From: Kribbella antibiotica
Lineage (GTDB): Bacteria > Actinomycetota > Actinomycetes > Propionibacteriales > Kribbellaceae
Assembly (NCBI RefSeq): GCF_004349055.1
Contig: NZ_SMKX01000001.1
Location: 1-64,000 of the forward strand
Direction of reading: 5' to 3'
Length of the DNA: 64,000 nucleotides
Of this stretch, positions 23,220-52,657 are shown one piece after another. Position 1 is the first letter of the stretch. The number at the start of each line of letters is the position of its first letter. Made by a program: the position numbers and the translations under genes. The notes under the pieces were generated by a model. That model saw nothing but the letters and a program-made list of their open reading frames with translations, searched no databases and was not told the origin of the DNA.

Positions 23220-23852
23220 GGTTGCTCGCCGCACCGGACAAGCCGGGCACGTTGCTTGGGGTTGCTCGCCGCGGCGGCCGCGTTACAGAAAGAGCTTGGC
23301 TGGGCCCGGTGGCTGGTTGAGGTACTGGCGAGGTCGGCGATCGCGTGACCGTTGCTTGAGGTGCTCGCTATGGCTGGGGTGGAAAAGCGGCGCCGGGTGG
23401 AAACTCCATGTCGCCATTTGCACAAAACGTTCCACCCAGCTCGCCAGGCGGGCTGGTCGGTGGGGCTGGGGAGCTTTACCCGTCATTCCAGGTCAGTTTC
23501 GCTCCCCAGCCCGCCCGGATACCCGACGAATCGAGCGCTGGGGAGTTCACCGGCGTATCCGCTGCCGTTTCGCGCTATGCGGGACTTTTTCGGGTCTATG
23601 CGCCGAAAAATTCACGCGTAGCGAGGGTTGCCGGGGTCAGCCGGGCACTGCAGGACCCCGCGCTGCCTTGCCAGCGCTTTTCACCACCACCAAGGGTCAC
23701 TTTCCAGGCCTCCCCGCTACCGGCCGTAACCATAGCGAGTACCTCAATCGGCGGGAACGCGATCGCCGGCCTCGCCATCCCCCTCAGCCACGCGCCGGGC
23801 CCAGCCAAACTCTCACTGTAAATCGGCCGCAGCGGCGACCAGCCACAAGCCG
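23220..23852. repeat. 633-bp palindromic repeat, copy A
   Basis: This stretch recurs almost base for base at 51829-52657 after removal of a 190-bp insertion and its 5-bp duplication there. The outer parts are long imperfect inverted arms (23253-23373 and 23730-23850, about 121 bp each); both contain TTGGCTGGGCCCGG and GGCGATCGCG. The centre carries a smaller hairpin GCTGGGGAGC...GCTCCCCAGC (23465-23510). Several frames are open, but none resembles a known protein. It occupies the whole gap between the DUF4832 gene and the permease operon. A fold-back element or a structured non-coding repeat is the best description. Confidence 0.8.
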
Positions 23853-23888
23853 TACCGACCCGGCCGCATCGCGGCGATACCCCAGCCC

Positions 23889-24770
23889 CTACTTCAGCCC
23901 AGAGAAGTTCAGCGACTCCACCAGCCGCTTACCCAGAAAGATGAGCAGCAGCAGTACCGGGATGACGGACAGCACTGAGCCGGCCATCAGCCCCGTCCAG
24001 TCCGGCGCGCGGTTAGGCGACTGCTGAAGGAAGACGCCCAGACCAACAGTAAGGACTCGAGTCTCCTCGCCCTTGCCCACCAGTAGCGGCCAGAGGTAGT
24101 CCTTCCAGCTCCAGACAATGGTGGTGAGGCCGATGGTGATGAGCGGCCCGCGACTCATCGGCAGCACGATCCGCCAGAACATCCCCCACGGACCGACACC
24201 TTCGAGCAGGGCGGCTTCTTCGACCTCGCGGGGGATCGACAAAAAGAACTGGCGCAGGAAAAACACCGCGAACGGTGTCATCAGCAGGCTCGGTAGGACG
24301 AGGCCAGGGATGGTGTTCAGTACGCCGAGTTGCTTGGCCAGCACGAAGTTCGGGAGCAGGGTGAAGATCGGCGGCACCATCAGGGCGGCGACGATGATGC
24401 CGAAGGCCAGGTCGCGGCCGGGGAAGCGCAGGCGCGCGAAGGCGTAGCCGGCCATGGCGCAGCAGAAGGTCTGCACTAGAGCGATCGAGCCGCTGTAGAT
24501 CATTGAGTTCAGCGTGTAGCGCAGGAAGTTGATCTGCGCCCCGGAGCCACCGGCGGCTCGCGCCTCAGCCGCGTCGACGAGTCCGAGCACCCGGCGGAAG
24601 TTGATCAGGGTCGCGTGATCCGGCCACAACGAAGTGGAGCCGGCGTACAGGTCGGCTGCGGGGGTGAGCGCTGTCCGGACCATCCAGTAGAAGGGGAAGA
24701 TCGTCAGGACGAGCGCCGTGGTCAGGATGATCCAGGCAACGACTCGGCCGGGCCTCAGGTTGGCGAACAT
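23889..24770 (-). CDS. Carbohydrate ABC transporter permease (MalG type)
   Basis: A 293-aa inner-membrane permease with six predicted helices. The binding-protein-dependent EAA loop reads EVEEAALLEGVGPWGMFWRI, followed by LPMSRGPLITIG. It partners the MalF-type permease encoded 10 bp upstream and the lipoprotein at 19677-21032. The 3' end lies only 36 bp from repeat copy A, so the original downstream part of the operon has probably been displaced. Confidence 0.93.
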   Translation of the reverse strand: MFANLRPGRVVAWIILTTALVLTIFPFYWMVRTALTPAADLYAGSTSLWPDHATLINFRRVLGLVDAAEARAAGGSGAQINFLRYTLNSMIYSGSIALVQTFCCAMAGYAFARLRFPGRDLAFGIIVAALMVPPIFTLLPNFVLAKQLGVLNTIPGLVLPSLLMTPFAVFFLRQFFLSIPREVEEAALLEGVGPWGMFWRIVLPMSRGPLITIGLTTIVWSWKDYLWPLLVGKGEETRVLTVGLGVFLQQSPNRAPDWTGLMAGSVLSVIPVLLLLIFLGKRLVESLNFSGLK

Positions 24771-24780
24771 GGCGTGGCTC

Positions 24781-25650
24781 CTAGGTCAGGTCCGAGCGGG
24801 ATGCGCGCAGCATCCGCAGCTGGACGAACGTCAGCACGCCCAGTACGACGACGAGCACCATCGCGACCGCGGCTGCGTAGCCCATGTGGAAGTAGGTGAA
24901 GGCCTGTTGGTAGATGTAGTAATAGATGACGCGGGTCTCGGGGATGGGCGCTTTACCGCCGTAGACAACCGCGACCGTGTCGAAGATCTGGAACGAGCCG
25001 ATCATCGACACGACCAGTACGAGCGCAAGGATCGGCCGGATCAACGGCAGCGTGATCGAACGGAACATCCGCACCTCACTGGCTCCGTCGATCGACGCGC
25101 TCTCGTAGAGATGCTGCGGTACCTGCAACATTCCGGCGTACAGGAGTAGTGCGGTGTAGCCGGTGTAGGCCCAACTGTTGACGAGGGCAACCAACGGCAT
25201 CGCCCAGTTGGGGGAGTTGAAGGACACCGTCGTCCCGAGCAGGTGGTTGACGAATCCCAGGTCAGGGTCGAGCAGCCAGGCCCACAACAGGCCGATCGTC
25301 ACGTTCGGAACGAGCCACGGCACCAGCAACGCAGCCCGCAGTACGACGGACCGCGTCAACCGGTGCATGAGCGCCGCGAGCCCCAGCGCGAGCAGAGTCT
25401 GGGACACGATGTTGACCACGACGTAGTAGCCGGTCACCTTCAACGCGTTCCAGAACTGCTCGTCGCCGATCAGCTTGCGGTAGTTGTCACCGCCAACGAA
25501 CGTCGGTTCGTTGAGCAGGCTGTAGTCGGTCAGCGAGTACCAGACACCTCGCACTGTTGGGTACGCATAGAAGATCTGGAAGCCGGCAATTACCGGCAGC
25601 AGGAACAGCCATCCGACTCGACGGTCGTCCCGCCGCCTCACCACAGTCAT
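24781..25650 (-). CDS. Carbohydrate ABC transporter permease (MalF type)
   Basis: A 289-aa permease with about six membrane helices. The EAA loop is HLYESASIDGASEVRMFRSI, then TLPLIRPILALVLVVS. First gene of the two-permease unit. The promoter's -10 box (CATCAT, 25657-25662) ends only 6 bp before ATG 25650, so the transcript is probably leaderless. The shared promoter sequence ties it to the binding-protein/glycosidase/ROK operon downstream. Confidence 0.93.
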   Translation of the reverse strand: MTVVRRRDDRRVGWLFLLPVIAGFQIFYAYPTVRGVWYSLTDYSLLNEPTFVGGDNYRKLIGDEQFWNALKVTGYYVVVNIVSQTLLALGLAALMHRLTRSVVLRAALLVPWLVPNVTIGLLWAWLLDPDLGFVNHLLGTTVSFNSPNWAMPLVALVNSWAYTGYTALLLYAGMLQVPQHLYESASIDGASEVRMFRSITLPLIRPILALVLVVSMIGSFQIFDTVAVVYGGKAPIPETRVIYYYIYQQAFTYFHMGYAAAVAMVLVVVLGVLTFVQLRMLRASRSDLT

Positions 25651-25656
25651 GGGATA

Positions 25657-25684
25657 ATGATGCGGCCTAGCGAAACTTTGTCAA
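25657..25684 (-). promoter_or_regulatory. Promoter/operator of the permease operon (probably leaderless)
   Basis: TTGACA (25679-25684, minus strand), a 16-bp spacer and CATCAT (25657-25662) are followed by 6 bp and the ATG. The core TTGACAAAGTTTCG matches the promoter at 21088-21115 except for one base. TTACG lies just upstream in both. Confidence 0.65.
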
Positions 25685-25712
25685 CAGCGAAGCGTAACGC
25701 GGGCCCTGTCGG

Positions 25713-26624
25713 TCAGTGGAAGTTCCACTCCGCGCGCGGGCCGGGGCCGACGGTCAAGGTGGAGTTGCCGATCTGCTCGACGTGGCGGGGCGTCGGGTGG
25801 TTCAGGCGGAACTGGACCTGCTTGAGGCCGGCGTCGGCGCGCTCGACGCGGTCCAGCCGGATGGTGGTGAAGTCGCTCTGGGCGATGATGCCGGTCGGCA
25901 AGGTGCGGAGCTTGAAACCGCCGGCGCGCAGGAGCGGCACGGTCGCGTCGAGATCCTTGGCGGTGACGCCGAATCGGATCAGCGTGATGTCGCGCATCAG
26001 GCGCTCGCGGTACAGGTCCGGCAGATACCGCTCGCGGCTGACATCACCGTCGTACTGGGCGGGCTCGGTCTTGCTGCGCGGATCGGCGAGATAGGAGGGC
26101 AGGTACTCCATCGCCCAGCCCCCGAAGGCGTCGTACGTCGTCTCAGCGAAGACCGCGTCGAACCAGGGGATCGGTACGCCGTCGCCGAAGTCGCGCGTCT
26201 GCTGGTATTCGAAGGGCTCGACCCCGGCCCGGCGCAGACCCGCGACGATCTTCGGGTAACCGCCTTGGCGGTCGGTCGAGATCGCGAGACCGGCGGAGCC
26301 CTCCGCGGCGTCCTGACCCGGCAGATCGCCGGCCGCGAACAACTCGAGATAGGTCTCGCGGCCCTTCAGATACCGGCCCTTCCAGGTCTGGCCGCCACCG
26401 GTGGTGGTGCGGACCTCGAAGTTCGCGAACTCACGCAGGTACGCCGAGTTCTCGATCGCATCCGCGGTCGGCTTGTCGAGGACGCCGTACGCGTGGTTGT
26501 AGAACGCTGTCACAGTCCCTCCGGCCTGGGCGGTCGGCGCCGTCAGCAACACTACGGCCGAGGCGAGGGCAGTCAGTAAGGTCATCGGGCGAAAGCTGCG
26601 CATGAGCGACACCGTAGATGCCAT
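25713..26624 (-). CDS. Secreted protein, DUF5829-like
   Basis: A 303-aa exported protein with a signal peptide (about 1-35, cleavage near AQAGG). The mature part begins TAFYNHAYGVLDKPTADAIE and includes ETYLELFAAGD and GDGVPIPWFDAV, recalling DUF5829, a glyoxalase/VOC-like family of unknown role. No catalytic motif is evident. Several in-frame ATGs near the N terminus make the start uncertain; ATG 26603 (MRSFRP) would also give a good signal peptide. It is divergent from the DUF998 gene. Confidence 0.65.
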   Translation of the reverse strand: MASTVSLMRSFRPMTLLTALASAVVLLTAPTAQAGGTVTAFYNHAYGVLDKPTADAIENSAYLREFANFEVRTTTGGGQTWKGRYLKGRETYLELFAAGDLPGQDAAEGSAGLAISTDRQGGYPKIVAGLRRAGVEPFEYQQTRDFGDGVPIPWFDAVFAETTYDAFGGWAMEYLPSYLADPRSKTEPAQYDGDVSRERYLPDLYRERLMRDITLIRFGVTAKDLDATVPLLRAGGFKLRTLPTGIIAQSDFTTIRLDRVERADAGLKQVQFRLNHPTPRHVEQIGNSTLTVGPGPRAEWNFH

Positions 26625-26662
26625 GTCATCGAAATTTCATGCACTGGCAGGAACATGCACTC

Positions 26663-27223
26663 ATGAGCACCGCTTTGGCCGCCGTCGCCGCCGCCGCACT
26701 CCTCCTGATCCGGCTGGGCCTGTTCGTCGCCCTGCATGTCGTCCGCAGCGACTACAACCCCATTGAGCATGCCGTCAGCGACTACGCCGTGGGCCCGACC
26801 CGCCGCCTCTCGACCATCGCCGCCTGGGTTTGGGGCGCGGCCTGGGTCGCCCTCGCCTTCGCGGTCGACTCAGCATCGGCGCGGGTCTGGCTGCTGGTCC
26901 TGGCTGTGATCTTCGTGGCACTCCCGTTCATCCCGACCGATCTCGAAGGCACCCGACAGACCGTGATCGGGCGGGTTCACTACGTGGCGGCGGTCGCCTG
27001 GTTCGCGATCAGCTTCAGCCTGATGAGCACCTTCACGGACCGGTACGACGTCGCCGTACTGACCGTCTTGCGCTGGATCGCGCTCGTGTCGCTGGCAGCA
27101 CTCGTGATTGCACTCGTCGTGCGCCCGCTTCGGCGCCGGTTCTTCGGGCTCTCGGAGCGGGCGTTCATCGTTGCGGTCAACCTCTTCTACCTGATCGTGG
27201 CGATCCTGACTGTGACGCGCTGA
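26663..27223 (+). CDS. DUF998-family membrane protein
   Basis: An integral membrane protein of 186 aa with about six hydrophobic helices. The first two flank VVRSDYNPIEHAVSDYAVGP, the DUF998 signature, and LPFIPTDLEGTR follows the third or fourth helix. The role is unknown. ATG 26663 is preferred because it starts directly before the first helix. The neighbouring genes give no functional clue. Confidence 0.8.
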   Translation: MSTALAAVAAAALLLIRLGLFVALHVVRSDYNPIEHAVSDYAVGPTRRLSTIAAWVWGAAWVALAFAVDSASARVWLLVLAVIFVALPFIPTDLEGTRQTVIGRVHYVAAVAWFAISFSLMSTFTDRYDVAVLTVLRWIALVSLAALVIALVVRPLRRRFFGLSERAFIVAVNLFYLIVAILTVTR

Positions 27224-27260
27224 CGGGTTCGGGTGGTCTGTGGCCGGGTACTGAGGGGCC

Positions 27261-27959
27261 ATGGATGCGACTGAGCTGCTGGCGGCGACGGAAGGGTTGT
27301 CGAAGGCGTTGACGCCTGGCGACCTGGACCACACGTTGGGCCGGATCACGGCGGCTGCGGTCGAGGTGCTGCCTGAGGTCGAGTACGCGAGCATCACGGT
27401 CAAGCACGGTGATGGGCGGCTGGAGACGGTTGCGCCGACCAGCGACATCTTGTGGGGTGTGGACGCGGCGCAGTACGAGTTACGCGAAGGGCCCTGTTAC
27501 CAGGCGGCGACGGAGCAGGTGCACATCCTGTCGCCGCACCTGGCCGAGGACAGCCGGTTTCCCCGGTACGCCGCCAGTGCGGTTGCGGCGGGGATTCTCG
27601 CGCAGGGCGGGCTGCGGCTGTTCGATGCGCCGAAGTCGCAGGGGGCGTTGAACCTGTACTCGACGAAGGTCGGTGCTTTCGAGGACATCGCGACGATCGG
27701 GGCGTTGTTCGCGCATCAGTCGGCGATGGCGATCGAGTACGCGCAGGAGATCAAGGACCTGCAGGACGCGTTGCGCACCCGGCGGACGATCGGTCAGGCG
27801 ATCGGCATTCTGATGGAGCGGTACACGCTCTCCGACCAGCGGGCGTTCGCGTTCCTGGCCCGGCTGTCGCAGCAGCGCAATGTGAAGCTGCACCGGGTGT
27901 CGGCGGAGCTGGTCGCCGATGCCGAGCATGCGGCCGGTGAAGTCATCAGCAAGAGTTGA
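27261..27959 (+). CDS. GAF and ANTAR domain RNA-binding antiterminator
   Basis: A 232-aa cytoplasmic protein with an N-terminal GAF domain (about 20-160, VEYASITVKHGDGRLET, LNLYSTKVGAF) and a C-terminal ANTAR domain (about 172-228, RRTIGQAIGILMERYTLSDQ). ANTAR domains bind paired hairpins in nascent RNA and prevent termination; the GAF part senses an unknown signal. Its stop directly abuts the stop of a convergent homologue, so the two form a tail-to-tail pair. Confidence 0.92.
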   Translation: MDATELLAATEGLSKALTPGDLDHTLGRITAAAVEVLPEVEYASITVKHGDGRLETVAPTSDILWGVDAAQYELREGPCYQAATEQVHILSPHLAEDSRFPRYAASAVAAGILAQGGLRLFDAPKSQGALNLYSTKVGAFEDIATIGALFAHQSAMAIEYAQEIKDLQDALRTRRTIGQAIGILMERYTLSDQRAFAFLARLSQQRNVKLHRVSAELVADAEHAAGEVISKS

Positions 27960-28658
27960 TCACCTCGAGTCACGGCCGGGGAGTTTGCGGGTGTTGATGA
28001 AGTCCTGGGCGACGTCGCGGAGCTTGCGGTTGTTGTCCTGGGAGTAGCGCCGCAGGACCTCGAAGGCGCGGTCGCCGTCGAGGTTGTAGCGCTCCATCAG
28101 GATGCCCATCGCCTGGCCGATCAATTTCCGGGCATCGACGGCTTGCTGCATGGTCGCCTGATGGCGGGCGGCCGCGATGGCGATCGCTGCGTGCCGGGCG
28201 AGGATGTGCGCGATGGCCAGGTCGTCCTCGGTGAACGCGCCGGGTTTGGCGCCGTACAGGTTGAGGACGCCGCCGGCACGGCCGGTGACGGTCAGCGGGA
28301 GGTGGACCGCACTGTAGATACCAGCCGCGATCAGCCGGCTGGTCAGCTGTGGCGACCATCTGGTTTCGGTCTGAAGGTCAGGGATCGACAGCGCTGCGCG
28401 GTCGCGGATGGCGGTCAGCAGTGGTCCATCCCCGGCGTTGATCTGCTCCTGGTAGAGCTCGGCCAGCCGCGGATCGGTCGACGCCAGCACCTCGGGACGG
28501 CGGCCCTGGGCGATCAGCACTACGGAGGCGTACCGGCAGCGCACAGCGTGTAACGCGAACTGGACGACGGCCTCGACGGTCTTGTCGATCCCGTCGACTT
28601 CCTGCAGCTCCGTGGCCAGTCGGCTGAAGGCTTCGGCCGACTTGAGATGGTCAGACAT
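27960..28658 (-). CDS. GAF and ANTAR domain RNA-binding antiterminator (paralogue)
   Basis: About 232 aa with the same plan as the convergent neighbour: GAF (about 15-155, YASVVLIAQGRRPEV, LNLYGAKPGAFTEDDLA) and ANTAR (about 168-225, ARKLIGQAMGILMERYNLDG). The pair is probably an old inverted duplication with diverged sensors. ATG 28658 (MSDHL) is preferred over 28673 because it follows a GGAGCCC-type ribosome site and fits the family's N terminus. Confidence 0.9.
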   Translation of the reverse strand: MSDHLKSAEAFSRLATELQEVDGIDKTVEAVVQFALHAVRCRYASVVLIAQGRRPEVLASTDPRLAELYQEQINAGDGPLLTAIRDRAALSIPDLQTETRWSPQLTSRLIAAGIYSAVHLPLTVTGRAGGVLNLYGAKPGAFTEDDLAIAHILARHAAIAIAAARHQATMQQAVDARKLIGQAMGILMERYNLDGDRAFEVLRRYSQDNNRKLRDVAQDFINTRKLPGRDSR

Positions 28659-28808
28659 GAAAGGGCTCCACACGCCTCGCGGCGGCAGCCACCCACCTTC
28701 CGGAGCGACCCGTCACTATCCTGCCTGATGATCGCGCTTCGCCGCACGTTGCCCCGGTCGGCCTGCCTAGGGCAACTCGCGCCCGCGGCACGAACTACAG
28801 TCAGAGCC

Positions 28809-29747
28809 GTGAATCCTGTCCGGCCCTTGGATGCGGCTGACCCGGTGCGGGCCGTGCTCGAGGCCCGGGAGCGCGGGGTGCCGATCGCGCTGGCAACGTC
28901 CGGTACGACGGATCGGCCGCGGTTCGTGGTCCGCGATCCGGAGTCGTGGTGGGCGTCGTTCCCGGCGTACTCGGAGCTGACCGGGGTCGGTCCCGGAGCT
29001 TCCGTCTGGATCCCGGGGCCCTTGAGCGCGACGATGAACCTGTTCGCAGCAGTGCACGCGGCTGCCGTTGGGGCTCGGGTTGTTGAGGATGCTGCTGACG
29101 CGACCCACGCCTGTATGACGCCTGCTCAGCTCGATCGGCTTGGCGGCGAGCTGAGGCCCGATGCGCTGGTGTGTGTCGCGGGCGCCCGGTTGGAGCAACG
29201 GTCAGCGGGTCCGCAGGTAGTCCACTACTACGGTGCGGCCGAGCTGTCGTTTGTGGCCGCGGGCAACCATGGTGACGACCTCCAGCCGTTCAAGGGGGTT
29301 GAGGTCGATCTGCGCGACGGCGAGATCTGGGTGCGATCGCCGTACGTGTGTCTCGGGTACGCCGACGGCGCAGCCGGCCCACTGCGCACCGACCGCGATG
29401 GCTGGGCGACGGTGGGTGATCGCGGCCGCTGGTCCGGTACGACGCTCAGTGTCCTCGGCCGACCTGGAACCGTCACGACCGCTGGGGCGACCGTGGTGAT
29501 CGCCGAGGTGGAGGAGCAACTCGCGAAGGTGGCTCGGGGGCCGGTGGTTGTTTTCGGAGTCCCGCATGAGGTGCTCGGTGAAGTGCTGGCGGTCGCCGTC
29601 GTCGAGTCGGCGGATCTGACGCGGTTGAAGGCGTATGCCCGCGAGCACCTGCCGTCGTCGCACCGGCCGCGTCGTTGGCAGGTCGTCGACGAGTTGCCGT
29701 TGACCGCCGGTGGCAAGGTCGACCGAGCGAGGTTGGCCAGTGTCTGA
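28809..29747 (+). CDS. Short class I adenylate-forming enzyme (acyl-CoA ligase-like)
   Basis: A 312-aa AMP-binding enzyme. It has the P-loop ATSGTTDRPRFVV, the A5-like motif YYGAAELSF, A7 WATVGDRG, A8 LGRPGTVTTAGATVVIAEVEEQL split by the usual hinge, and the catalytic Lys in LPLTAGGKVDRARL. It lacks the roughly 150-residue N-terminal subdomain of full-length ligases and resembles MenE-like short forms. GTG 28809 lies 6 bp after a TACAGT -10-like box, so it may be leaderless. The gene overlaps the thiolase start and heads an operon with bioM and bioN. It may activate a carboxylate linked to biotin or pimelate metabolism; this is inference. Confidence 0.82.
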   Translation: MNPVRPLDAADPVRAVLEARERGVPIALATSGTTDRPRFVVRDPESWWASFPAYSELTGVGPGASVWIPGPLSATMNLFAAVHAAAVGARVVEDAADATHACMTPAQLDRLGGELRPDALVCVAGARLEQRSAGPQVVHYYGAAELSFVAAGNHGDDLQPFKGVEVDLRDGEIWVRSPYVCLGYADGAAGPLRTDRDGWATVGDRGRWSGTTLSVLGRPGTVTTAGATVVIAEVEEQLAKVARGPVVVFGVPHEVLGEVLAVAVVESADLTRLKAYAREHLPSSHRPRRWQVVDELPLTAGGKVDRARLASV

Positions 29748-30843
29748 CCTGTTCATCACCCACGCGTTGCGGACCCCGATCGGTACCGCCGGCAAGGCCT
29801 TTCGCGACGTCACCGCCGCCGACCTGGGCGCCGCCGTACTGGAGGAGCTTGTTCGCAGGCTTGCCGGTGCTGACGTCGAAGACGTTGTCCTAGGCAACTG
29901 CATGGGACCGGGCGGCAATGTCGCCCGGGTGGCCGCCCTCACGGCAGGGATCGCCGACCAGGTCCCGGCGCTGACGGTGGATCGGCAATGCGCCAGCGGT
30001 CTGGCCGCAATCCAGGTCGCCGCCGCAGGCTCGCCGAGCGGGTACGTGCTGGCGGGTGGGGTCGAGAGCGCTTCGACCGCACCTTGGCGATTTTGGCCGC
30101 CGGCTTCTGGTGCGGACGCTGTGCGGTATGAGCGGGCTCCGTTTGCGCCGGTCGGACGCGATCCGGCAATGGGCGCGGCGGCGGATGCATTGGCCGAGAT
30201 GTACGGAATCACTCGGGCGCGGCAGGACGAGTACGCGGCGCGGTCGCATGAGCGGGCCGCTGCAGCCCAGGGCGCTGGAGCGTTCGACAGCGAGCTAGTG
30301 CCGGTAGGCAGTCGCGCGACGGATGAGCGCATCCGGGCCGGACTGACGGCGGAGCGGTTGGGGAAACTGCCGGCGGTGTTTCGCACCGGCGGGACTGTGA
30401 CGGCGGGGAACTCTTGTGGGGTTAACGACGGCGCGGCCGTGGTTGCGATGTCAACGGCCAGACCAGGACCGGCCCTCAAAGTCCTGGCTGCGGCTTCCGC
30501 GGGAGTTGATCCGGCGTTGCCAGGGCTTGGGCTGGTGCCCGCTGTGCAAAAGGTCTTGAAGACGGCTGGGTTGAGCCCGGCCGAGATTGACGTGTGGGAG
30601 TTCAACGAGGCGTTCGCCGGTCAGGTGCTCGCGTGTTGCGACGTGCTTGGGCTGGCCGACGAACGCGTCTGCCCGCAAGGTGGGGCGTTGGCGCTCGGCC
30701 ACCCGTGGGGCGCGAGTGGCGCCGTACTGGCGGTGCGGTTGTTCACCCAGCTCGTCACACAAGAGGGCGGTCGGTACGGCGTCGCAGCGATCGCGGCGGG
30801 TGGCGGTCAAGGTGCGGCGATTCTGGTCGAAGCATGCCGCTGA
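29740..30843 (+). CDS. Thiolase-family protein lacking the C-terminal catalytic Cys
   Basis: A 367-aa thiolase-fold protein. The acyl-accepting Cys84 (VDRQCASGLAAIQ), NEAFAGQ and GHPWGASGA are intact. The final motif, normally CxGGGxG, reads AAGGGQG, with Ala352 where the second catalytic Cys (acid/base for Claisen chemistry) is expected. A normal acetyl-CoA acetyltransferase cycle is therefore doubtful; acyl transfer or decarboxylative condensation would still be possible. GTG 29740 overlaps the ligase stop by 8 bp, and its stop overlaps the bioM start, so the genes are translationally linked. Confidence 0.85.
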   Translation: MSDLFITHALRTPIGTAGKAFRDVTAADLGAAVLEELVRRLAGADVEDVVLGNCMGPGGNVARVAALTAGIADQVPALTVDRQCASGLAAIQVAAAGSPSGYVLAGGVESASTAPWRFWPPASGADAVRYERAPFAPVGRDPAMGAAADALAEMYGITRARQDEYAARSHERAAAAQGAGAFDSELVPVGSRATDERIRAGLTAERLGKLPAVFRTGGTVTAGNSCGVNDGAAVVAMSTARPGPALKVLAAASAGVDPALPGLGLVPAVQKVLKTAGLSPAEIDVWEFNEAFAGQVLACCDVLGLADERVCPQGGALALGHPWGASGAVLAVRLFTQLVTQEGGRYGVAAIAAGGGQGAAILVEACR

Positions 30844-32643: not shown

Positions 32644-32736
32644 ACCGTCATTGTGCCTGCTGCCGGTCCTGTCAAGAACTCGATCATGGAGATCGAAACG
32701 ATAGGCGGCCTCGTCAGGAGTGCCTAGCTTGTCGGC

Positions 32737-40654: not shown

Positions 40655-40707
40655 TTGGTGACCGTCGATAGACTCAGCCTGCAGATGGCCGATGGAAGGG
40701 AGCCGAC

Positions 40708-42509: not shown

Positions 42510-42615
42510 GGTCCCGGGATTCCGGAGAATTTTGACCGGCAACGGAATGGGTCAGTCGGTCAGGCGGTTGAGGACTGAACAACCTGATCGCACCACTCTT
42601 GTGGAGGTACCGCTC

Positions 42616-43404: not shown

Positions 43405-43421
43405 GGTTTAGAGTCGACCGC

Positions 43422-43676: not shown

Positions 43677-43774
43677 AACGTCCGAACGATCGGAGGGCGG
43701 GTCTCCGATTCTTCGGACGTTTGCCGGGGCTGGGGAGTGTTGCCTGTCGATTCCGGTGCGTAGCGCTCCCCAGC
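43675..43774. repeat. Hairpin repeat module, related to the 23.1-23.5 kb repeats
   Basis: Two adjoining stem-loops. The first (43677-43721) pairs AACGTCCGAA-CG-ATCGGAG with CTCCGAT-TC-TTCGGACGTT. The second (43729-43774) pairs GCTGGGGAG with CTCCCCAGC. The 18-mer CCTAACGTCCGAACGATC at its start is identical to that in the hairpin at 23110-23159, and the CTGGGGAG stem recurs in copies A and B of the palindromic repeat. Confidence 0.7.
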
Positions 43775-45564: not shown

Positions 45565-45578
45565 TCGGCAAAGCCATC

Positions 45579-46535
45579 TCAAGAAGGTTGTGAAAAGGAC
45601 CCCTCGACCACCGGCAGCGCGTAGTCCCAGAGCCGGTCGGCCGCCTCGGGGTCCACAGCCCACTTCGCCACACCGGCCTGGACCTCGGGTCCGCCGTCCA
45701 CGACCGGCGCCTCCTGGTTGTTCTCGAAGTAGCCTCCGGTCACGCCGTCGAGCAGCGGTGAGGCTGCCAGCATCGTCGTCGTCGCGGCACCCTGGTCAGG
45801 CGTCTTGAAGAAGTCCTGGGTGATCAGGTTGCCGTCGGCATCCATAGCGCCGAGTGCCTGCATGGTCGCGTCCGGGATGTGGCGCGCCAGCTTGGTGTGG
45901 ATGAACCCGGGGTTGGCGGCGTTGGCGGTGATGCCGTCCGCACCCCACTTCCGGCCGATACCGACCGCGAGCAGTACGTCGGCCGCCTTCGACTGGGCGT
46001 AGGCCAGGAACGGGTCATACGGCCGCTCGGCGAAGTGCGGGTCGTCGAAGTCGAACCCGGTCTGCAGCTGGAGGCCGGAGCTGAGCAGGACCACGCGCGC
46101 GCGGCCGGCTGCCTTGAGGGCCGGGTACAGGCCGTTCACGAGCGCGAAGTGACCGAGGTAGTTGGTCGCGAGCTGCAGCTCCCAGCCATCGGAGTTCTTC
46201 TGGAGCGTGGGCAGCGCCATGATGCCGGCGTTCGCGACGACTGCATCGAGGGGGCCGTTCCACCCCTTGGTGAAGGCGTGGACCGACGCGAGATCGGCGA
46301 GGTCGATGGCCGCGGCGTCAACCCGCGGGAACTCGGCCAGCAGCGGGGCCGCGTCGTCCGGGTTACGCGTCGCGATGGTGACCTGGGCACCGGCGCCCGC
46401 AAGCGCGCGCACAGTGGCGGCGCCGAGGCCTGAGGCCCCGCCGGTGACGATGAATCGCCGGCCGGTCAGGTCGACACCGGCAAGCACCTCAGCCGCGGTG
46501 GCCCGCGGTCCGAACGGGAGAACGAAGGGAGACAT
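45579..46535 (-). CDS. Short-chain dehydrogenase/reductase (retinol-dehydrogenase-like)
   Basis: A 318-aa SDR. The cofactor motif is TGGASGLG (about 31-38), then NAGIM, the catalytic Ser in VLLSSG and YAQSK as the YxxxK pair. It is of the WWOX/retinol dehydrogenase-like group; the substrate is unknown. A near-perfect TetR-type palindrome (46560-46580) lies 25 bp before ATG 46535, so it is probably controlled by a TetR protein encoded elsewhere. Confidence 0.92.
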   Translation of the reverse strand: MSPFVLPFGPRATAAEVLAGVDLTGRRFIVTGGASGLGAATVRALAGAGAQVTIATRNPDDAAPLLAEFPRVDAAAIDLADLASVHAFTKGWNGPLDAVVANAGIMALPTLQKNSDGWELQLATNYLGHFALVNGLYPALKAAGRARVVLLSSGLQLQTGFDFDDPHFAERPYDPFLAYAQSKAADVLLAVGIGRKWGADGITANAANPGFIHTKLARHIPDATMQALGAMDADGNLITQDFFKTPDQGAATTTMLAASPLLDGVTGGYFENNQEAPVVDGGPEVQAGVAKWAVDPEAADRLWDYALPVVEGSFSQPS

Positions 46536-46559
46536 GGGAGCTTCTTTTCTCGTAGCCGA

Positions 46560-46580
46560 ACACTCTGTCGTACAGAGTGT
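46560..46580. promoter_or_regulatory. TetR-type palindrome before the SDR gene
   Basis: ACACTCTGT-CGT-ACAGAGTGT has perfect 9-bp arms around a 3-bp centre, and lies in the promoter of the SDR gene. No TetR gene is adjacent. Confidence 0.6.
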
Positions 46581-46732
46581 ACGGCAAGCCCAAAACGAAC
46601 AAACACACCCGAAAGATCAGATCTATTCCCGATCCTTGGGTGATAGATCCGCTTGATCTTCCCAAAATGCCGAGTTTCTGTCAGGGTTTGCGCGTCGATT
46701 GATCTGAACTATCCGTCCAGATAGGTGCCGCC

Positions 46733-49700
46733 ATGCCGCGTTCCGCTCGCCGGCTTCTCGCCGTGCTGGGCAGCCTCGTGCTGCCTGCTGTGCTACTTCC
46801 CGTCGTTGCTGAGGCAGCGACCGTCACCACCTTGTACGTCGCTCCGTCGGGCGGGGCCGGTTCCGGGACCCTGGCCCGGCCGTTCGGGTCGCTGGAGCAG
46901 GCGCGCGACCAGGTTCGCAAGCTCGCCAAGAACCAGCGCGCGGACATTCGCGTCGTACTGCTCGCCGGTGACTACCAGCGGACCACCACGTTCCAGCTGA
47001 CCAGCGCCGACTCCGGGCGGAACGGGCATCAGGTGATCTACCAGGCGCAGCCCGGCGCCAAGGTGACGGTGAACGGCGGCCGGCTGGTGACCGGCTGGAC
47101 GCTCTCCGACCCGGCCAAGAACATCTACAAGGCGCATGTCGGCGCGATCGACTTCCGTCAGCTCTATGTGAACGGCGAGCGCCAGCAGCGTGCTCGTGGG
47201 CGCGAGAATCCGCCTGGGTGGTCGAAGACTGCGACCGGGTACACGGACAGCACGCAGAGCATGGTCGGCTGGAAGAACCAGGGCGAGATCGAGGTGAACA
47301 GCCGCTGGGGCTGGATGCACTACCGCTGCCCGATCCAGTCGATCGCCGGGACGGCGGTCACGATGCAGCAGCCCTGCTACAAGAACGCCAACCTGCACCA
47401 GGGTGAGGAGATCCAGAACCCGACCTGGATCGAGAACGCCTACGAGCTGCTCGATACGCCGGGGGAGTGGTATCTCGACAAGAGCACCGGCGACGTCTAC
47501 TACGTGGGTGACCCGTCGACCAAGACCGTCGTGGTCCCGCAGGTGCAGGACCTGGTCAACGTCAGTGGGACGATCGCGAACCCGGTACAGAACATTCGGT
47601 TCGACGGGATCACCTTCTCCTACTCGACCTGGCTCGACCCGAGCAGCGACGACGGCATGGTCGAGGGCCAAGCCGGCTTCCGGATCAACGGGCCGAACTG
47701 GCGCGACTTCGACCACTCGCGGTTGTACTGGGAGAAGACTCCCGGCGCGGTGAACGTGGGCTACAGCCGGAACATCTCCTTCACCGGTAGCACTTTCACG
47801 CACCTCGGCGCGGTCGGGCTCAACCTGAACACCGGCTCGCAGGGGACCACGATCAAGGGCAACATCTTCCGCGACATCGCCGCGACCGGCATCCAGGTCG
47901 GTGGCACCGACATCATCGACCACCACCCGGACGATGTCCGGGCGATCACCAAGGACAACCTGGTCAGCAACAACCTGATCACCAAGGCTGCGGCCGACTA
48001 CTCCGGTTCGCTGGCGATCATGGCCGGCTACACCGAGCACACCGTGATCGAGCACAACACGATCCGCGACCTGCCGTACAGCGGGATCTCGCTCGGCTGG
48101 GGCTGGGGCAACACCGATGTCGGCGGGGACACGAACTACCCGGGCAACTTCGGGATCCCGATCTACGACACCCCGACCACCGCGAAGAACAACATCATCC
48201 GCGACAACTCGATCAGCGACATCATGAAGCGCCAGGCCGACGGCGGGGCGATCTACACGTTGAGCATGCAGCCCGGGAGCGTTGTCTCCGGCAACTACAT
48301 CAAGGACACCCCGAGCCCGGCGTACGGCGCGATCTACCACGACGAAGGTAGTCGCAGCTTCACCACCACCGAGAACGCGTTGTGCAATGTGCAGGCGTTG
48401 TGGCTGTTCCTCAATCACGGGCTGAACATCGATGCCCAGCGAAACTTCACCACCCAGCCGCGCTCGGCGACCCAGGCCAACACCATCGACTCGACGATCG
48501 CCAACAATCCGGTGGTTGCGGGCTGCGAGCAACTTCCGGCCTCGATCGTCAACAATGCCGGGCTGGAGGCGCCGTACCGGTCTCTCGACCCGCAGCCGGC
48601 GCCGACCGACCGGATCGCGCCGACCGCGCCCGGCAAGCCCGTCGTACGGACGAGTTTCCCGACCATCGCCGAGCTGAGCTGGCCGGCGTCGACCGACCAG
48701 ACCGGCGTCACCGGCTACTCGGTTTATGCGAACGGCAAGCTGGTCGGCGCCTCACAAGGTGCATCAGCGCGGATCACCGGTCTCGTCACGGGACGCAGCT
48801 ACACCTTCACCGTCACTGCGCGCGACGCCGTGGGCAATGAATCCTGCGTCAGCTCAGCAGTTGCCGTCACCATTCCGGCCAACGAGAACATCGCGTTGAA
48901 CAAGCCGGTGACCGTGTCTTCGTTCTCCGAGCCGAACGTCCGGGCCCTGGCCGTCGACGGGAAGCTGTCCACGCGGTGGGCGCAGGGCCTCGGTCAGCCT
49001 GATCCGTCGTGGCTGCAGGTAGACCTTGGAGCCCAGTACGACGTGAGCGGCGTGATCACGACCTTTGAGCTCAGCAACGGATATCGCTACAAGCTCGAGA
49101 TCTCGTCGGACGGTAGCGACTGGATCACCTTCGAGGATCACACGGGTACGGCGACGACGCAGGCGGACAACTATGCGTCCCTGCCGGTCTCTGTCCGCGG
49201 TCGCTATCTCCGGCTGACGGTGGTCGGCTCGAACTTCAATGGCGGCAGCATCTACGAGATCGCGGCGTACGGAAAGCTCGCGACCGTGACGCCCGATCAG
49301 CAGCCGCCGGCCGCGCTGCCGAAGCCGACGGTGAACGTTCTGCTGCCGACGACGCTCGACCTCAGCTGGCCGACCGGTACCGACAATGTTGGCGTGACCA
49401 GCTATGTCGTCTACCAGGACGGCCAGAAGATCGCGACCACTCCGCTGAACCAGCTGCGGGTTGATGGGCTCGTGGCGGGCTCCAGTCACAACTTCACGGT
49501 GGTGGCTCGCGACGCCAACCTGAACGCGGCCCCGGCCAGCCCGGCCGCTGATGTCACCATGCCGGCTGAGGCCGGGCTCGCGGTCGGCAAGGCGGTCACG
49601 GTGTCCTCGTTCTCCGAACCGAACGTTCCGGCCCTGGGCGTCGACGGGGATCTGAACACGCGGTGGGCGCAAGGGCTCGGTCTGCCGGATCCGTCGTGGT

Positions 49701-49969
49701 TCCAGGTGGATCTTGGCGCGGCGACCTCGGTGAAGAGCATCGTGACGAACTTCGAGCTGCCCAGCGGGTACAAGTACAAGCTGGAGTATTCGCTGGATGG
49801 GACGGCGTGGTCGATGTTCGACGACCACACTGCGGTGGCAACGACTGTCCGCCGAAACCCGTCGATCCGTACGGCGGCCGTCCAGGCGAGATATGTTCGG
49901 CTCACCGTGGTCGGCTCGAACTTCAGCGGTGGCAGTATTTACGAACTCCAGGTCTACGGCGGCTTCTGA
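46733..49969 (+). CDS. Secreted right-handed beta-helix protein with two Fn3-F5/8C modules
   Basis: A 1078-aa exported protein. A signal peptide (1-28) leads into a parallel beta-helix region (about 30-610; GSLEQARDQVRKLAK, NGGRLVTGWTLSD, and repeated NTI/NNLI turns as in polysaccharide lyases). Two tandem modules follow: Fn3 (about 625-705) plus F5/8C or CBM32 (about 715-850), then Fn3 (about 856-940) plus F5/8C (about 945-1078). The two F5/8C copies are very alike (VTVSSFSEPNV and RWAQGLG in both), showing an internal duplication. It is likely a polysaccharide-degrading or -binding enzyme. The FadR-type gene that follows by 14 bp may regulate it. Confidence 0.88.
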   Translation: MPRSARRLLAVLGSLVLPAVLLPVVAEAATVTTLYVAPSGGAGSGTLARPFGSLEQARDQVRKLAKNQRADIRVVLLAGDYQRTTTFQLTSADSGRNGHQVIYQAQPGAKVTVNGGRLVTGWTLSDPAKNIYKAHVGAIDFRQLYVNGERQQRARGRENPPGWSKTATGYTDSTQSMVGWKNQGEIEVNSRWGWMHYRCPIQSIAGTAVTMQQPCYKNANLHQGEEIQNPTWIENAYELLDTPGEWYLDKSTGDVYYVGDPSTKTVVVPQVQDLVNVSGTIANPVQNIRFDGITFSYSTWLDPSSDDGMVEGQAGFRINGPNWRDFDHSRLYWEKTPGAVNVGYSRNISFTGSTFTHLGAVGLNLNTGSQGTTIKGNIFRDIAATGIQVGGTDIIDHHPDDVRAITKDNLVSNNLITKAAADYSGSLAIMAGYTEHTVIEHNTIRDLPYSGISLGWGWGNTDVGGDTNYPGNFGIPIYDTPTTAKNNIIRDNSISDIMKRQADGGAIYTLSMQPGSVVSGNYIKDTPSPAYGAIYHDEGSRSFTTTENALCNVQALWLFLNHGLNIDAQRNFTTQPRSATQANTIDSTIANNPVVAGCEQLPASIVNNAGLEAPYRSLDPQPAPTDRIAPTAPGKPVVRTSFPTIAELSWPASTDQTGVTGYSVYANGKLVGASQGASARITGLVTGRSYTFTVTARDAVGNESCVSSAVAVTIPANENIALNKPVTVSSFSEPNVRALAVDGKLSTRWAQGLGQPDPSWLQVDLGAQYDVSGVITTFELSNGYRYKLEISSDGSDWITFEDHTGTATTQADNYASLPVSVRGRYLRLTVVGSNFNGGSIYEIAAYGKLATVTPDQQPPAALPKPTVNVLLPTTLDLSWPTGTDNVGVTSYVVYQDGQKIATTPLNQLRVDGLVAGSSHNFTVVARDANLNAAPASPAADVTMPAEAGLAVGKAVTVSSFSEPNVPALGVDGDLNTRWAQGLGLPDPSWFQVDLGAATSVKSIVTNFELPSGYKYKLEYSLDGTAWSMFDDHTAVATTVRRNPSIRTAAVQARYVRLTVVGSNFSGGSIYELQVYGGF

Positions 49970-49983
49970 AGGGCAGTGCATCG

Positions 49984-50706
49984 ATGAGCGACGTCCCCAC
50001 CTATCGGCCGGGCTATGAGGTGGTGGCCGAGCAACTGCTCGCCTACATCGCCGAGCAGGGGCTCCGGCCGGGGGACCGGCTGCCCACCGAGAAGGGGCTG
50101 GCCGAGATCCTCGGTACCGGTCGATCGGTGACCCGCGAGGCGCTCAAGGTCCTCGCGGCGGTCGGGCGCGTCGCCGTACGGAAGGGTGCGGGCATCTACG
50201 TGTCCGTGCCCTCCAACCCGGCAGCGGACAGCCAGGTCGGGTATTTCCAGCCGACCGACCTGGCGCATGTCGCGATGCTGTTCGATCACCGGCGGCTGGT
50301 CGAGGCGGAGTCCGCGCGCCTCGCCGCGACGCTCGCTCGGCCGCCGCTGGTCCGCGCGATCATGGCTGCCGCCGAGGCATCGGTCGCGGCGCATCAGGAT
50401 CATGCTGCCTTCCGGGAGCAGGACCGATTGTTCCACGATGCCGTGGCTGAGGCCTCCGCAAACGTCTTCCTGCAGGCTGCGGTCACGTCGTTGCGCGACT
50501 TCAAAGAACAGTCCGACCGGTTGCTTTTCGCCGGTGGGCTGCCCGGCTCGCTCGAAGTCGCTGCGCAGCAGCACGTGCACATCGCTGAGGCGATCGCGGC
50601 AGGTGACCCCGACCAGGCGCGTACGGCGATGGTTCAGCACATCGACACCACCCAGTCCCAGTTCGAAGAACGGATTCGGGACCGGCTGAAGGCAGCACCG
50701 CAGTAG
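49984..50706 (+). CDS. GntR/FadR-family transcriptional regulator (FCD domain)
   Basis: A 240-aa regulator with an N-terminal GntR winged helix (about 8-75: LRPGDRLPTEKGLAEILGTG, SVTREALKVLAAVGRVAV) and a C-terminal FCD helical domain (about 95-225) with metal-ligand-like residues D..H..H (DRLFHDAVAEAS, HVHIAEAIAAGD). FCD regulators respond to sugar acids, amino acids or other carboxylates. ATG 49984 starts 14 bp after the beta-helix protein, so the two may be co-transcribed. Confidence 0.92.
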   Translation: MSDVPTYRPGYEVVAEQLLAYIAEQGLRPGDRLPTEKGLAEILGTGRSVTREALKVLAAVGRVAVRKGAGIYVSVPSNPAADSQVGYFQPTDLAHVAMLFDHRRLVEAESARLAATLARPPLVRAIMAAAEASVAAHQDHAAFREQDRLFHDAVAEASANVFLQAAVTSLRDFKEQSDRLLFAGGLPGSLEVAAQQHVHIAEAIAAGDPDQARTAMVQHIDTTQSQFEERIRDRLKAAPQ

Positions 50707-50812
50707 GTACGCAGGGCGGATCTACGTAATTCTCGCCGACGCGGGAGCGGGCCGGGCGCTGCGAGGCTTCAGGCATCAAGTTGATGACCGGAAGCACGGA
50801 GAGGAACGCCCG

Positions 50813-51220
50813 ATGATCTACCACGGCAACCGACTGACCCTGAAGCCCGATGTGGCCCCCGAGCAGGTCGAGGCGGCGCTGGAAAGCCTGCGGAACCAAG
50901 GCCGGTCGATCCCGGCGGTGAAGTCGTTCATCGTCGGCCGCGACTACGGCGGTGAGTACGAGTGGGCCGCGACCTTCGTCCTCGAGGATCTCGAGGGCTA
51001 CTGGGAGTACCTGATCCACCCGGCCCACCTGAACACCGACCGCATCGGCCTGCCGCTGGTCGACAAGTTCGTGTCGTTCGACATCTGCGACGAGGAGGAC
51101 CCCGAGGTCGGCGCCAAGATCGCGGCCCTGCACCAGCGCCGCTACGACACCATGCCCGACATCAGCAAGCTCGTCGCCAACCTCGGCGAGTACGTCGGCA
51201 GTGCACCGCCGCGGAGCTGA
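50813..51220 (+). CDS. Dabb-family (stress-responsive A/B barrel) protein
   Basis: A 135-aa protein with the Dabb ferredoxin-like barrel: MIYHGNRLTLKPDVAPEQV at the start, then FIVGRDYGGEYEWAATFVLED and YLIHPAHLNTDRIGLPLVDK. Members dimerise into a barrel; some are cyclases or stress proteins. The role here is unknown. ATG 50813 follows GGAGAGGAA. Confidence 0.85.
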   Translation: MIYHGNRLTLKPDVAPEQVEAALESLRNQGRSIPAVKSFIVGRDYGGEYEWAATFVLEDLEGYWEYLIHPAHLNTDRIGLPLVDKFVSFDICDEEDPEVGAKIAALHQRRYDTMPDISKLVANLGEYVGSAPPRS

Positions 51221-51247
51221 ACGTCGTACCGGTGCTCGGCCGGCCGC

Positions 51248-51757
51248 CTACGCGATGACGATCTTCGCGGTCTTGGTGACGCTGAACTCGCCCTTGCCGC
51301 CGCCGCAGAAGTCGATCTTGTAGGTGAACGTGTAGGTGCCGGCCTTGGCGTAGGTGTGCGGGTCGGCCGGCTCGTACGTCTGCGTGCCGGTGTGCTGCTT
51401 CTTCGCGCCCTGACAAGTCACGCCACCACCGTCAGCGCCACCCGGCTCGGACCCGTCACCGAAGCTGTAATCCGAACCCAGACTGAGGTCGACGAACCCC
51501 GTCCCCACAGGTAGCGGCTGCTGGTCGTCAGCCCCCAGCGGTACGACGATCGTGCCGGCGACGGTCACCTTCAGCGTCATCACCCGTCCCTTGACGACAG
51601 GTGCCAGCGTCACCTCCGCCCCAACCTTCGCCGGAACACTCGGTGTCGTTGTCGGTGCGACAGTCGGCGTACTGGAGTTGCATGCAGCAACAACAACCGC
51701 AGCCAGTAGCGCGGCCCCGAGAATGGTCAGCTTCGGAAGAGATCTGAAAATCGCCAC
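51248..51757 (-). CDS. Lipoprotein with PKD-like beta domain
   Basis: A 169-aa predicted lipoprotein: signal peptide, lipobox VAA-C26, a Thr/Pro-rich linker, and a beta-rich domain (TLKVTVAGTIVVPLGADD, VDLSLGSDYSFGDGSEPGG, KAGTYTFTYKIDFCGGGKG) with the GDG...GTYTFTYK pattern of PKD-like folds. Two cysteines in the domain may pair. The function is unknown. GTG 51757 is preferred; the longer frame runs into repeat copy B. Confidence 0.7.
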   Translation of the reverse strand: MAIFRSLPKLTILGAALLAAVVVAACNSSTPTVAPTTTPSVPAKVGAEVTLAPVVKGRVMTLKVTVAGTIVVPLGADDQQPLPVGTGFVDLSLGSDYSFGDGSEPGGADGGGVTCQGAKKQHTGTQTYEPADPHTYAKAGTYTFTYKIDFCGGGKGEFSVTKTAKIVIA

Positions 51758-51828
51758 GGTCGAGGGTAGCGCCGTCGCGCCGGAAAGGGGCCTATCGCAA
51801 CAATCGGCGCGTCCGGTACGGCGGTGCC

Positions 51829-52657
51829 GGTTGCTCGCCGCACCGGACAAGCCGGACACGTTGCTTGTGGTTGCTCGCCGCGGCGGCCGCGTTACATAAA
51901 GAGCTTGGCTGGGCCCGGCGCGTGGTTGAGGTACTGGCGAGGTCGGCGATCGCGTGTCCGTTGCTTGAGGTGCTCGCTATGGCTGGGGTGGAAAAGCGGC
52001 GCTGAGTGGAAACTCCTGTGCGCCATTTGCACAAAACAATCCACCCAGCGACCTCGGGGGCTGGAGTGCGGGGTTGGGGAGTTTTACCTGTCATTTCGGG
52101 TCAGTTTTGCTCCCCAGCGCGGCCGGATGCCTGACAGGTCGGGCGCTGGGGAGTTCTATCGGCGTATCCGCCTGCCGTTTCGCGCTACGCGGGACTTTTT
52201 CGGGTCTATGAGGCTGTCGCAAAATGGGAGATGAAAACGATGTTCATCCCTGAGGTGCCAGAGCCATCGAATACGCCCTGGTCAGAGAGTTGCGACCTCG
52301 CCGCCTAATCGTGGTCCCCTCCACTTGGGCACCAAAATCGGCCAATTTGTGCGCGGTTCTCCCCACCGTGCCCAAGTCGAGCCCCATTTCGCTACAGCCT
52401 CTATGCGCCGAAAAATTCACGTGTAGTGAGGGTTGCCGGGGTCAGCCGGGCACTGCAGGACCCCGCACTGCCTTGCCAGCGCTTTTTACCACCGCGGAGG
52501 GTCACTTTCCAGGCCTCGGAGCTACCGGCCGTAACCATAGCGAGTACCTCAATCGGCGGGAACGCGATCGCCGGCCTCGCCATCCCCCTCAGCCACGCGC
52601 CGGGCCCAGCCAAACTCTCACTGTAAATCGGCCGCAGCGGCGACCAGCCACAAGCCG
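51829..52657. repeat. Palindromic repeat, copy B (interrupted by a MITE-like element)
   Basis: Direct-orientation copy of the 23220-23852 repeat. Its inverted arms are 51863-51982 and 52535-52655; the central hairpin (GTTGGGGAG...CTCCCCAGC) is near 52073-52118. The repeat is split at 52211-52400 by a 190-bp insertion with a 5-bp target duplication; without these it is 634 bp, against 633 bp for copy A. It fills the gap between the lipoprotein and the PBP gene. Confidence 0.82.
52211..52400. mobile_element. 190-bp MITE-like insertion in repeat copy B
   Basis: The left end AGGCTGTCGCAAAATGGG (52211-52228) and the right end (52383-52400, whose reverse complement is AGGCTGTAGCGAAATGGG) are 18-bp terminal inverted repeats with two mismatches. 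CTATG flanks both sides (52206-52210 and 52401-52405). Copy A has a single CTATG at the equivalent position (23596-23600), i.e. the empty site. No transposase gene fits inside, so it must be mobilised in trans. The IS family cannot be assigned by eye. Confidence 0.85.

What the first reader, a model, noticed from the sequence alone, without database searches (positions are those of the whole stretch)
23220..52657. A 633-bp fold-back repeat in two distant copies
The segments at 23220-23852 and 51829-52657 are close copies in the same orientation. In both, the outer roughly 121 bp form long imperfect inverted arms (23253-23373 with 23730-23850; 51863-51982 with 52535-52655), so a transcript would fold into one giant hairpin with smaller CTGGGGAG stems in the middle. 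No frame looks like a known protein. It may be a non-autonomous element or a structured RNA family.
Basis: seen in the sequence. Interest (0 to 1): 0.75.

Follow-up and report, generated by a model that had tools for sequence, protein, structure and literature searches.

The report
Fold-back repeats that catch jumping genes
A soil bacterium carries dozens of copies of a long DNA repeat that can fold back on itself, mostly tucked between the tail ends of neighbouring genes, and several different jumping genes have landed at the same few spots inside these repeats.

Summary
Both segments are copies of a fold-back repeat with arms of about 120 bp (about 155 bp in most other two-armed copies). The family occupies 48 places (about 40-48 copies) in this draft Kribbella genome, with diverged relatives in K. 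albertanoniae. Elsewhere in the genus only short arm-like fragments turned up (G044, G006, G039), though the searches scored only part of their candidates. The repeat is non-coding. With both neighbours known, 19 of 29 copies lie between convergent genes (background 24 of 180). Two copies are missing at orthologous sites in relatives. Arms of one copy do not match each other better than arms of different copies, and covariation support is absent, so a selected giant RNA hairpin is not supported. The unexpected part: the repeats are insertion hot spots. The extra 191 bp in window copy 2 is a MITE with three identical genomic copies, all in the loop of one hairpin. IS1182-family ends use that loop and an IS30-like element lies within a few bases. 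An IS110 element sits in an inner palindrome at six contig ends; its left end holds candidate bridge-RNA guides matching that target. Best reading: a large REP/BIME- or MITE-like repeat acting as IS landing pad; its own mover is unknown.

The parts
23219..23888 (+). Fold-back repeat, copy 1 (apical hairpin uninterrupted; A-type left end, B-type right end; lacks the inner TTGAACAAG palindrome; outer limits estimated)
   Evidence: lies between the stop codons of convergent genes 21326-23119 (+) and 23889-24770 (-)
23254..23373 (+). left inverted arm of copy 1
23730..23850 (-). right inverted arm of copy 1
23458..23517 (.). internal CTGGGGAG hairpin of copy 1
   Evidence: arms 23458-23474 / 23501-23517, 88% complementary
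23586..23610 (.). apical hairpin TTTTTCGG-gtctatgcg-CCGAAAAA of copy 1, uninterrupted; the loop is the IS1182/MITE target in other copies
51812..52680 (+). Fold-back repeat, copy 2 (interrupted by a MITE; outer limits estimated)
51863..51982 (+). left inverted arm of copy 2
52535..52655 (-). right inverted arm of copy 2
52210..52400 (+). nested MITE (191 bp, AGGCTGT termini) inserted in the apical hairpin loop; 3 identical copies found in the genome, all in this loop
52206..52209 (.). left copy of the target duplication CTAT (CTATG if the G at 52210 is counted)
52401..52404 (.). right copy of the target duplication CTAT(G)
23110..23159 (.). perfect 21-bp hairpin (CGTTCGGACGTTAG) at the stop codon of the left gene, terminator-like, next to copy 1

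Best explanation
The segments are two members of a family of large (about 0.63-1.0 kb), non-coding, modular fold-back repeats. The family expanded in this Kribbella species, sits mostly between the 3' ends of convergent genes, and is used by several insertion sequences as a fixed landing pad. SHOWN: family size, arm architecture, gene context (by a simple gene caller), absence of two copies from related genomes, lack of coding constraint and of within-copy compensation, and insertion of a MITE, IS1182-family ends and an IS110 end at fixed points. INFERRED: (1) the repeat spreads as a non-autonomous element, most likely mobilised in trans by a transposase that recognises the iterated terminal motif GGTACGGC..TGGTTGCTCGCCGC; copies persist mainly where they do no harm, at gene ends. 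(2) IS1182-family elements with their MITE, and an IS30-like element, choose the hairpin TTTTTCGGGTCYATRCGCCGAAAAA by shape and/or sequence, as REP-targeting IS do. (3) The IS110 element is guided by a bridge RNA in its left end, whose candidate guides ATTACCT and GGGACAG match the left and right sides of the CT core of its target in the inner palindrome.
For: 66 arm cores at <=2 mismatches; the backwards control pattern gave 6 matches at <=3 mismatches. Gene context: 19 of 29 convergent, 9 tandem, 1 divergent, against background 24 of 180 convergent, Fisher p = 1e-8; 60 of 77 known sides face a gene's 3' end. No predicted gene lay inside the element at the 32 places tested; at the 46 places the only one was the nested transposase at C265. 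The K. albertanoniae foldback also lies between convergent ORFs. Empty sites: C293 copy against G015, about 925 bp replaced by 14 bp; C88 copy against 10 of 10 other genomes compared, flanks overlapping to 57 bp apart (the eleventh, G015, has only one flank there). MITE: 3 of 3 genomic copies (20 of 20 candidates scored), identical, same loop, one in opposite orientation to the repeat, so independent insertions. IS1182-family 3' end at C265, C42, C28 in the same loop; at C300 and C121 an end with the same AGGCTGT terminus, taken as the 5' end. IS30-like ends at C143 and C312 in the same hairpin and at C284 in another hairpin loop (the IS30 name is recalled). IS110 left end: 6 of 6 genomic matches (16 of 16 candidates scored) at the same ATTAC|CT junction; the end at C149 encodes a tail 75% identical to an annotated IS110 transposase. 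Guide match: joint occurrence in 0 of 20,000 shuffled targets.
Against: No target duplication or conserved outermost terminus was found for the repeat itself; direct repeats of >=9 bp flank 2 of 22 copies, about what I estimate chance gives, so transposition of the repeat is inferred. No autonomous copy with its own transposase was found, and the RAYT/Y1 family PF01797 is absent. Gene context rests on a home-made gene caller that misses genes (one gap of 1.7 kb), and window copy 2 is itself the one divergent case. 16 places are contig-edge halves, so copies and insertion events may be counted twice. Only 113 bp of the IS110 left end is in the assembly, and its fold alone is unremarkable; I saw the guide match by eye before testing it, and the target varies among intact copies. 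The fragments at C300/C121 and the IS30-like ones gave no family hit. In one search only 15 of 143 first-look candidates were scored, so IS1182 copies elsewhere could have been missed. Some contig ends in or near copies (C81, C134, C117, C299 left side) do not show an IS at these loops.
Confidence: 0.75

Rival explanations
1. A structured RNA family: the repeat is transcribed and folds into one giant hairpin that is kept by selection.
For: Very stable fold, z = -15.8; location at gene 3' ends means read-through transcripts would contain it.
Against: Stability follows from the inverted arms themselves. Covariation term +4.3 kcal/mol, 11 of 229 pairs changed on both sides; within-copy arms not more alike than between-copy arms, 87.0% against 88.0%, p = 0.95; interior blocks are missing or replaced among copies; no Rfam match inside the element in four copies.
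Confidence: 0.07
2. A bidirectional transcription terminator or insulator that was recruited to, and is selected at, convergent gene ends.
For: 19 of 29 copies convergent and 60 of 77 sides 3'-facing; the K. albertanoniae copy also between convergent ORFs; terminator-like TTCGGACGTT hairpins within 150 bp of 4 of 27 elements tested plus copy 1, 0 in 129 kb elsewhere in those loci.
Against: Ten of ten relatives compared manage the C88 gene pair without the element; selection against insertion elsewhere would give the same pattern; far larger than a terminator needs; 10 of 29 copies are not convergent; the TTCGGACGTT hairpin also occurs in the window at 43677-43712, away from any copy.
Confidence: 0.2
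3. A defective transposon (MITE) of an ordinary DDE insertion sequence with unusually long terminal repeats, the active parent having been lost.
For: Long terminal inverted repeats, dispersed copies, no coding frame; two empty orthologous sites.
Against: No target duplication, no parent element found, termini not sharply defined and sometimes iterated.
Confidence: 0.35

Closest known systems
REP / BIME repetitive extragenic palindromes as IS targets (PMC1525189: abstract and first part of the Discussion read; PMC3733652: start of abstract and passages)
   Same: Dispersed intergenic palindromes, between unidirectional or convergent genes, hot spots for IS of several families including IS110
   Different: REPs are 20-40 bp, most with a GTAG or CGTC end; here units are 0.63-1.0 kb with arms of 120-155 bp, and the RAYT family PF01797 (link to REPs recalled) is absent
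Bacterial MITEs such as Correia/NEMIS, RUP, YPAL, ERIC (PMC2229807: abstract and section list seen)
   Same: Non-coding, terminal inverted repeats, many copies
   Different: Far longer arms (sizes of the others recalled), modular interior, no target duplication found, no parent IS found
IS1272, an element of the IS1182 family (membership recalled) that targets inverted repeats (PMC5678879: abstract and sections 22 and 24 read)
   Same: IS1182-type transposase, target is a stem-loop
   Different: IS1272 replaces the target stem-loop without duplication; here both stem sides stay and 4-5 bp are duplicated
IS621 and other IS110 elements with bridge RNA (PMC11208160: passages read)
   Same: Insertion in a palindromic repeat at a CT core, candidate target guides in the non-coding left end, LTG before RTG
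   Different: Target is the inner palindrome of a Kribbella fold-back repeat; guides predicted, RNA neither modelled nor tested

Membership tests
REP/BIME | short (20-40 bp) palindromic unit, most with GTAG or CGTC end, often served by a RAYT (PF01797; recalled) | tested here: not met
   unit 0.63-1.0 kb with arms of 120-155 bp; PF01797 absent in G000; the GTAG/CGTC tag was not tested
REP/BIME | dispersed, intergenic, biased to gene 3' ends, IS hot spot | tested here: met
MITE | non-coding with terminal inverted repeats and many dispersed copies | tested here: met
MITE | target site duplication at the element's ends | tested here: inconclusive
   direct repeats >=9 bp flank 2 of 22 copies, about chance level by my estimate
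MITE | parent transposon sharing the ends | tested here: inconclusive
   none among the matches in the own genome, 38 relatives, PLSDB plasmids or INPHARED phages; genome searches scored only part of their first-look candidates
Structured RNA family | covariation supporting a conserved fold | tested here: not met
Structured RNA family | match to a described RNA family | tested here: not met
   4 copies with flanks against Rfam 15: one below-threshold mir-2056 match, outside the element
IS1182 family (the nested IS) | IS1182-type transposase | tested here: inconclusive
   168-aa C-terminal fragment hits NF033551 at E = 1.7e-25, 89.9 bits against cut-off 270; the gene runs off the contig
IS110 family (the IS in the inner palindrome) | IS110-type recombinase | tested here: inconclusive
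   only 32 C-terminal residues available; 75% identical to an annotated IS110 transposase, E = 2e-9; no Pfam or NCBIfam hit at that length
IS110 family (the IS in the inner palindrome) | CT core and bridge-RNA target guides matching the insertion site | tested here: met
   7-nt LTG and 7-nt RTG in the expected order; 0 of 20,000 shuffled targets did as well; match noticed by eye before the test; donor guides and RNA fold not testable on 113 bp

The most novel reading that the evidence does not exclude
The fold-back repeats are a composite genomic safe harbour: palindromic modules, each recognised by a different mobile element (apical hairpin by IS1182/MITE and an IS30-like element, inner palindrome by a bridge-RNA-guided IS110), have been assembled and spread at convergent gene ends, so that insertion sequences repeatedly land where they do no damage.
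Probability: 0.25. Interest if true: 0.7.

Novelty: new variant of a known kind. Interest (0 to 1): 0.52.

Why it matters
It extends the REP-as-IS-target idea to a much larger repeat in an actinobacterium. It gives a case where several unrelated IS groups use fixed sites of one repeat family. It offers a natural IS110 element whose candidate bridge-RNA guides and target can be read from sequence and tested in a laboratory recombination assay. It also explains why many contigs of this draft assembly end in these repeats.

Tried and rejected
Coding element: four ORFs overlapping copies 1 and 2 have no Pfam hit, and indels break frames. RAYT/Y1 mobilisation: PF01797 absent. Target duplication of the repeat: not found. 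Plasmid or phage origin: no match at E <= 1e-3; two IMG/VR pattern hits are isolated 19-21-bp matches in unrelated contigs. Rfam: the mir-2056 match at L036 4810-4885 lies outside the element. Stand-alone fold of the 113-bp IS110 end: z = 0. The named-genome scan with the apical hairpin found only K. albertanoniae; records near the window's own genome may be left out there. Arm-like fragments in G044 (75-92 bp, 76-79%), G006 (37 bp, 89%) and G039 (25 bp, 100%) were fetched; none showed paired fold-back arms. Paper searches: Kribbella with MITE and inverted repeat gave 0 papers; searches listed no description of this repeat, judged by titles and starts of abstracts.
Full report
OBSERVATION. The arms and the central stem are at the stated places. 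Copy 1 folds at -387.9 kcal/mol, z = -15.8 against 20 shuffles. Copy 2 differs mainly by a 191-bp nested insert at 52210-52400.

FAMILY. BLAST of copy 1 against the own genome (9.28 Mb, 348 contigs) gave 131 pieces, with 40 of 154 first-look candidates scored. A pattern scan with the arm core found 66 sites at <=2 mismatches; the same pattern read backwards gave 6 sites at <=3 mismatches. Merged by hand these and the BLAST places make 48 places, of which 16 are halves at contig edges (listed), so about 40-48 copies. Twelve long copies share 85% mean identity, range 73-93%. Typical copies are about 800 bp with arms of about 155 bp; in 17 of 24 two-armed copies both arms are of this A type. Both window copies have a B-type right end and lack an inner palindrome around TTGAACAAG..CTTGTTCAA. 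The ends carry iterated units of about 40-45 bp around TGGTTGCTCGCCGC. Of 39 genomes (own plus 38 relatives, 13 or fewer candidates scored in each) 12 had a match: the own genome, G015 with diverged arms, 9 with only the inner palindrome, and G006 with a 37-bp arm piece. Later genus searches added arm-like pieces in G044 and G039; fetched, none of G044, G006, G039 showed paired fold-back arms. G015 appears to be Kribbella albertanoniae JCM 30547: its contig of 21,074 bases with the foldback has the length of NZ_SMKA01000158.1, the only contig with the exact apical hairpin in the named-genome scan (identity inferred). That the own genome is Kribbella follows from 'same genus' as G015.

CONTEXT. 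With a codon-usage gene caller of my own, 29 copies have both neighbours: 19 convergent, 9 tandem, 1 divergent (window copy 2). Junctions without a copy in the same loci: 24 of 180 convergent (Fisher p = 1e-8), or 6 of 110 for gaps of at least 30 bp (p = 2e-11). No predicted gene lay inside the element at the 32 places tested; at the 46 places the only one was the nested transposase at C265. Window copy 1 fills the space between the stop codons of a DUF4832 gene (with weak carbohydrate-binding-module matches) and an ABC permease gene. The K. albertanoniae foldback is also between convergent ORFs.

PRESENCE AND ABSENCE. At the C293 copy, G015 aligns on both sides (87% and 78%) with 14 bp in place of about 925 bp. 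At the C88 copy, 10 of 10 other genomes compared (G001, G002, G003, G009, G010, G011, G013, G018, G021, G046) have the two flanks overlapping to 57 bp apart; G015 has only the left flank on that contig, followed by a different palindromic sequence. For the C110 copy the two flanks lie on different contigs in G015, so nothing can be said from it. For window copy 2 no genome in the matches listed showed both flanks together. So four of 48 places were looked at and two were informative.

NOT AN RNA FAMILY BY THE TESTS MADE. Fold of 12 aligned copies: covariation term +4.3 kcal/mol, 11 of 229 pairs with changes on both sides. In 17 copies with two A-type arms, within-copy arm identity is 87.0% against 88.0% between copies, permutation p = 0.95. 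Arm variants are shared across copies as a mosaic, which suggests exchange between copies (inference). Frames are not kept: 324 of 367 pairwise indels are not multiples of three.

LANDING PAD. The hairpin TTTTTCGG-GTCYATRCG-CCGAAAAA is intact in 20 fetched copies and in window copy 1. In its loop lie: (a) the 191-bp MITE of window copy 2; all 3 genomic copies found (C111, C299, C32; 20 of 20 candidates scored) are identical and in this loop, C32 in the opposite orientation; (b) IS1182-family 3' ends at C265, C42 and C28, and at C300 and C121 an end with the same AGGCTGT terminus, which I take for the 5' end. The transposase fragment at C265 hits NF033551 and DDE_Tnp_1_6, below the full-length NCBIfam cut-off because it is cut by the contig end; the 23-aa start at C300 gave no family hit. 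Some of these five ends may belong to one insertion, so at least three events. (c) IS30-like ends at C143 and C312 abut the same hairpin (TTTTTCGGG|IS, IS|GGGTCTATG), possibly two sides of one insertion, and C284 has one in the GTGGAAACTTCATGTC hairpin; the IS30 label is recalled, as the short fragments gave no family hit. (d) Six contigs (C14, C101, C296, C305, C318, C346) end with one identical 112-bp sequence at the same ATTAC|CT junction in the inner palindrome; these are all 6 matches found in the genome (16 of 16 candidates scored). C149 has the other end, coding for a tail 75% identical to an annotated IS110 transposase, E = 2e-9. Other contig ends in or near copies (C81, C134, C117, left of C299) show no IS at these two loops.

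BRIDGE-RNA TEST. [quoted passage not shown] The left end here contains ATTACCT and, 23 nt later, GGGACAG; target ...AAGTAATTAC-CT-GTCCCGG.... With shuffled targets the LTG match occurred in 0.3%, the RTG match in 3.1%, both in order in 0 of 20,000. I noticed the match by eye before testing it, and intact copies vary on the right side of the target. The 113 bp at hand do not fold remarkably alone.

PRECEDENT. REPs as targets of IS from the IS3, IS110, IS4, IS256 and IS5 families are known (PMC1525189: abstract, first part of Discussion). REPs are mostly between unidirectional and convergent genes (PMC3733652, passages). IS1272 targets stem-loops by replacing them (PMC5678879, abstract and two sections; its place in the IS1182 family is recalled); here the stem is kept with a 4-5 bp duplication, so that mechanism is not what is seen. 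The size and composite build of the repeat, and several IS groups at fixed points of it, are what I find no description of in the paper searches named in Tried and rejected.

VERDICT. A real, unusually large intergenic fold-back repeat family that works like REP/BIME hot spots; mobilisation of the repeat itself remains open.

Noticed in passing
L036:2472-2566 (L036 element positions 443-537); single small copies in G015, G018, G010, G022, G001 and others: The inner palindrome around CTTGAACAAG..CTTGTTCAAG is a separate small dispersed repeat found in many Kribbella genomes, and is the IS110 target here.
   Followed up: partly
window 23110-23159; also 43677 and 43712; flanks of L032, L037, L048, L165: A terminator-like hairpin with TTCGGACGTT/AACGTCCGAA occurs close to several fold-back copies (4 of 27 tested plus copy 1) and not elsewhere in 129 kb of those loci, but also once in the window away from any copy.
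   Followed up: partly
L182, L184, L185, L187-L192 (G015 contig edges): An IS1182-like element of K. albertanoniae sits at contig edges; several of its flanks share a sequence like GCGGAGTNNTGCTGCCGGTAT, suggesting its own repeat target.
   Followed up: no
L194 (G015 C84), near the end: At the gene end where G000 has the C88 foldback, K. albertanoniae has a different palindromic sequence with GGAGATCCCCTC-type arms.
   Followed up: no
L163:1-113: Left end of an IS110 element with candidate bridge-RNA target guides; no contig with the body of the element was found by its left end.
   Followed up: partly
L225:973-1085 (G044): A single arm-end-like piece (76-79% identical) without an inverted partner, so old fragments of the ends may exist outside the two species.
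   Followed up: partly
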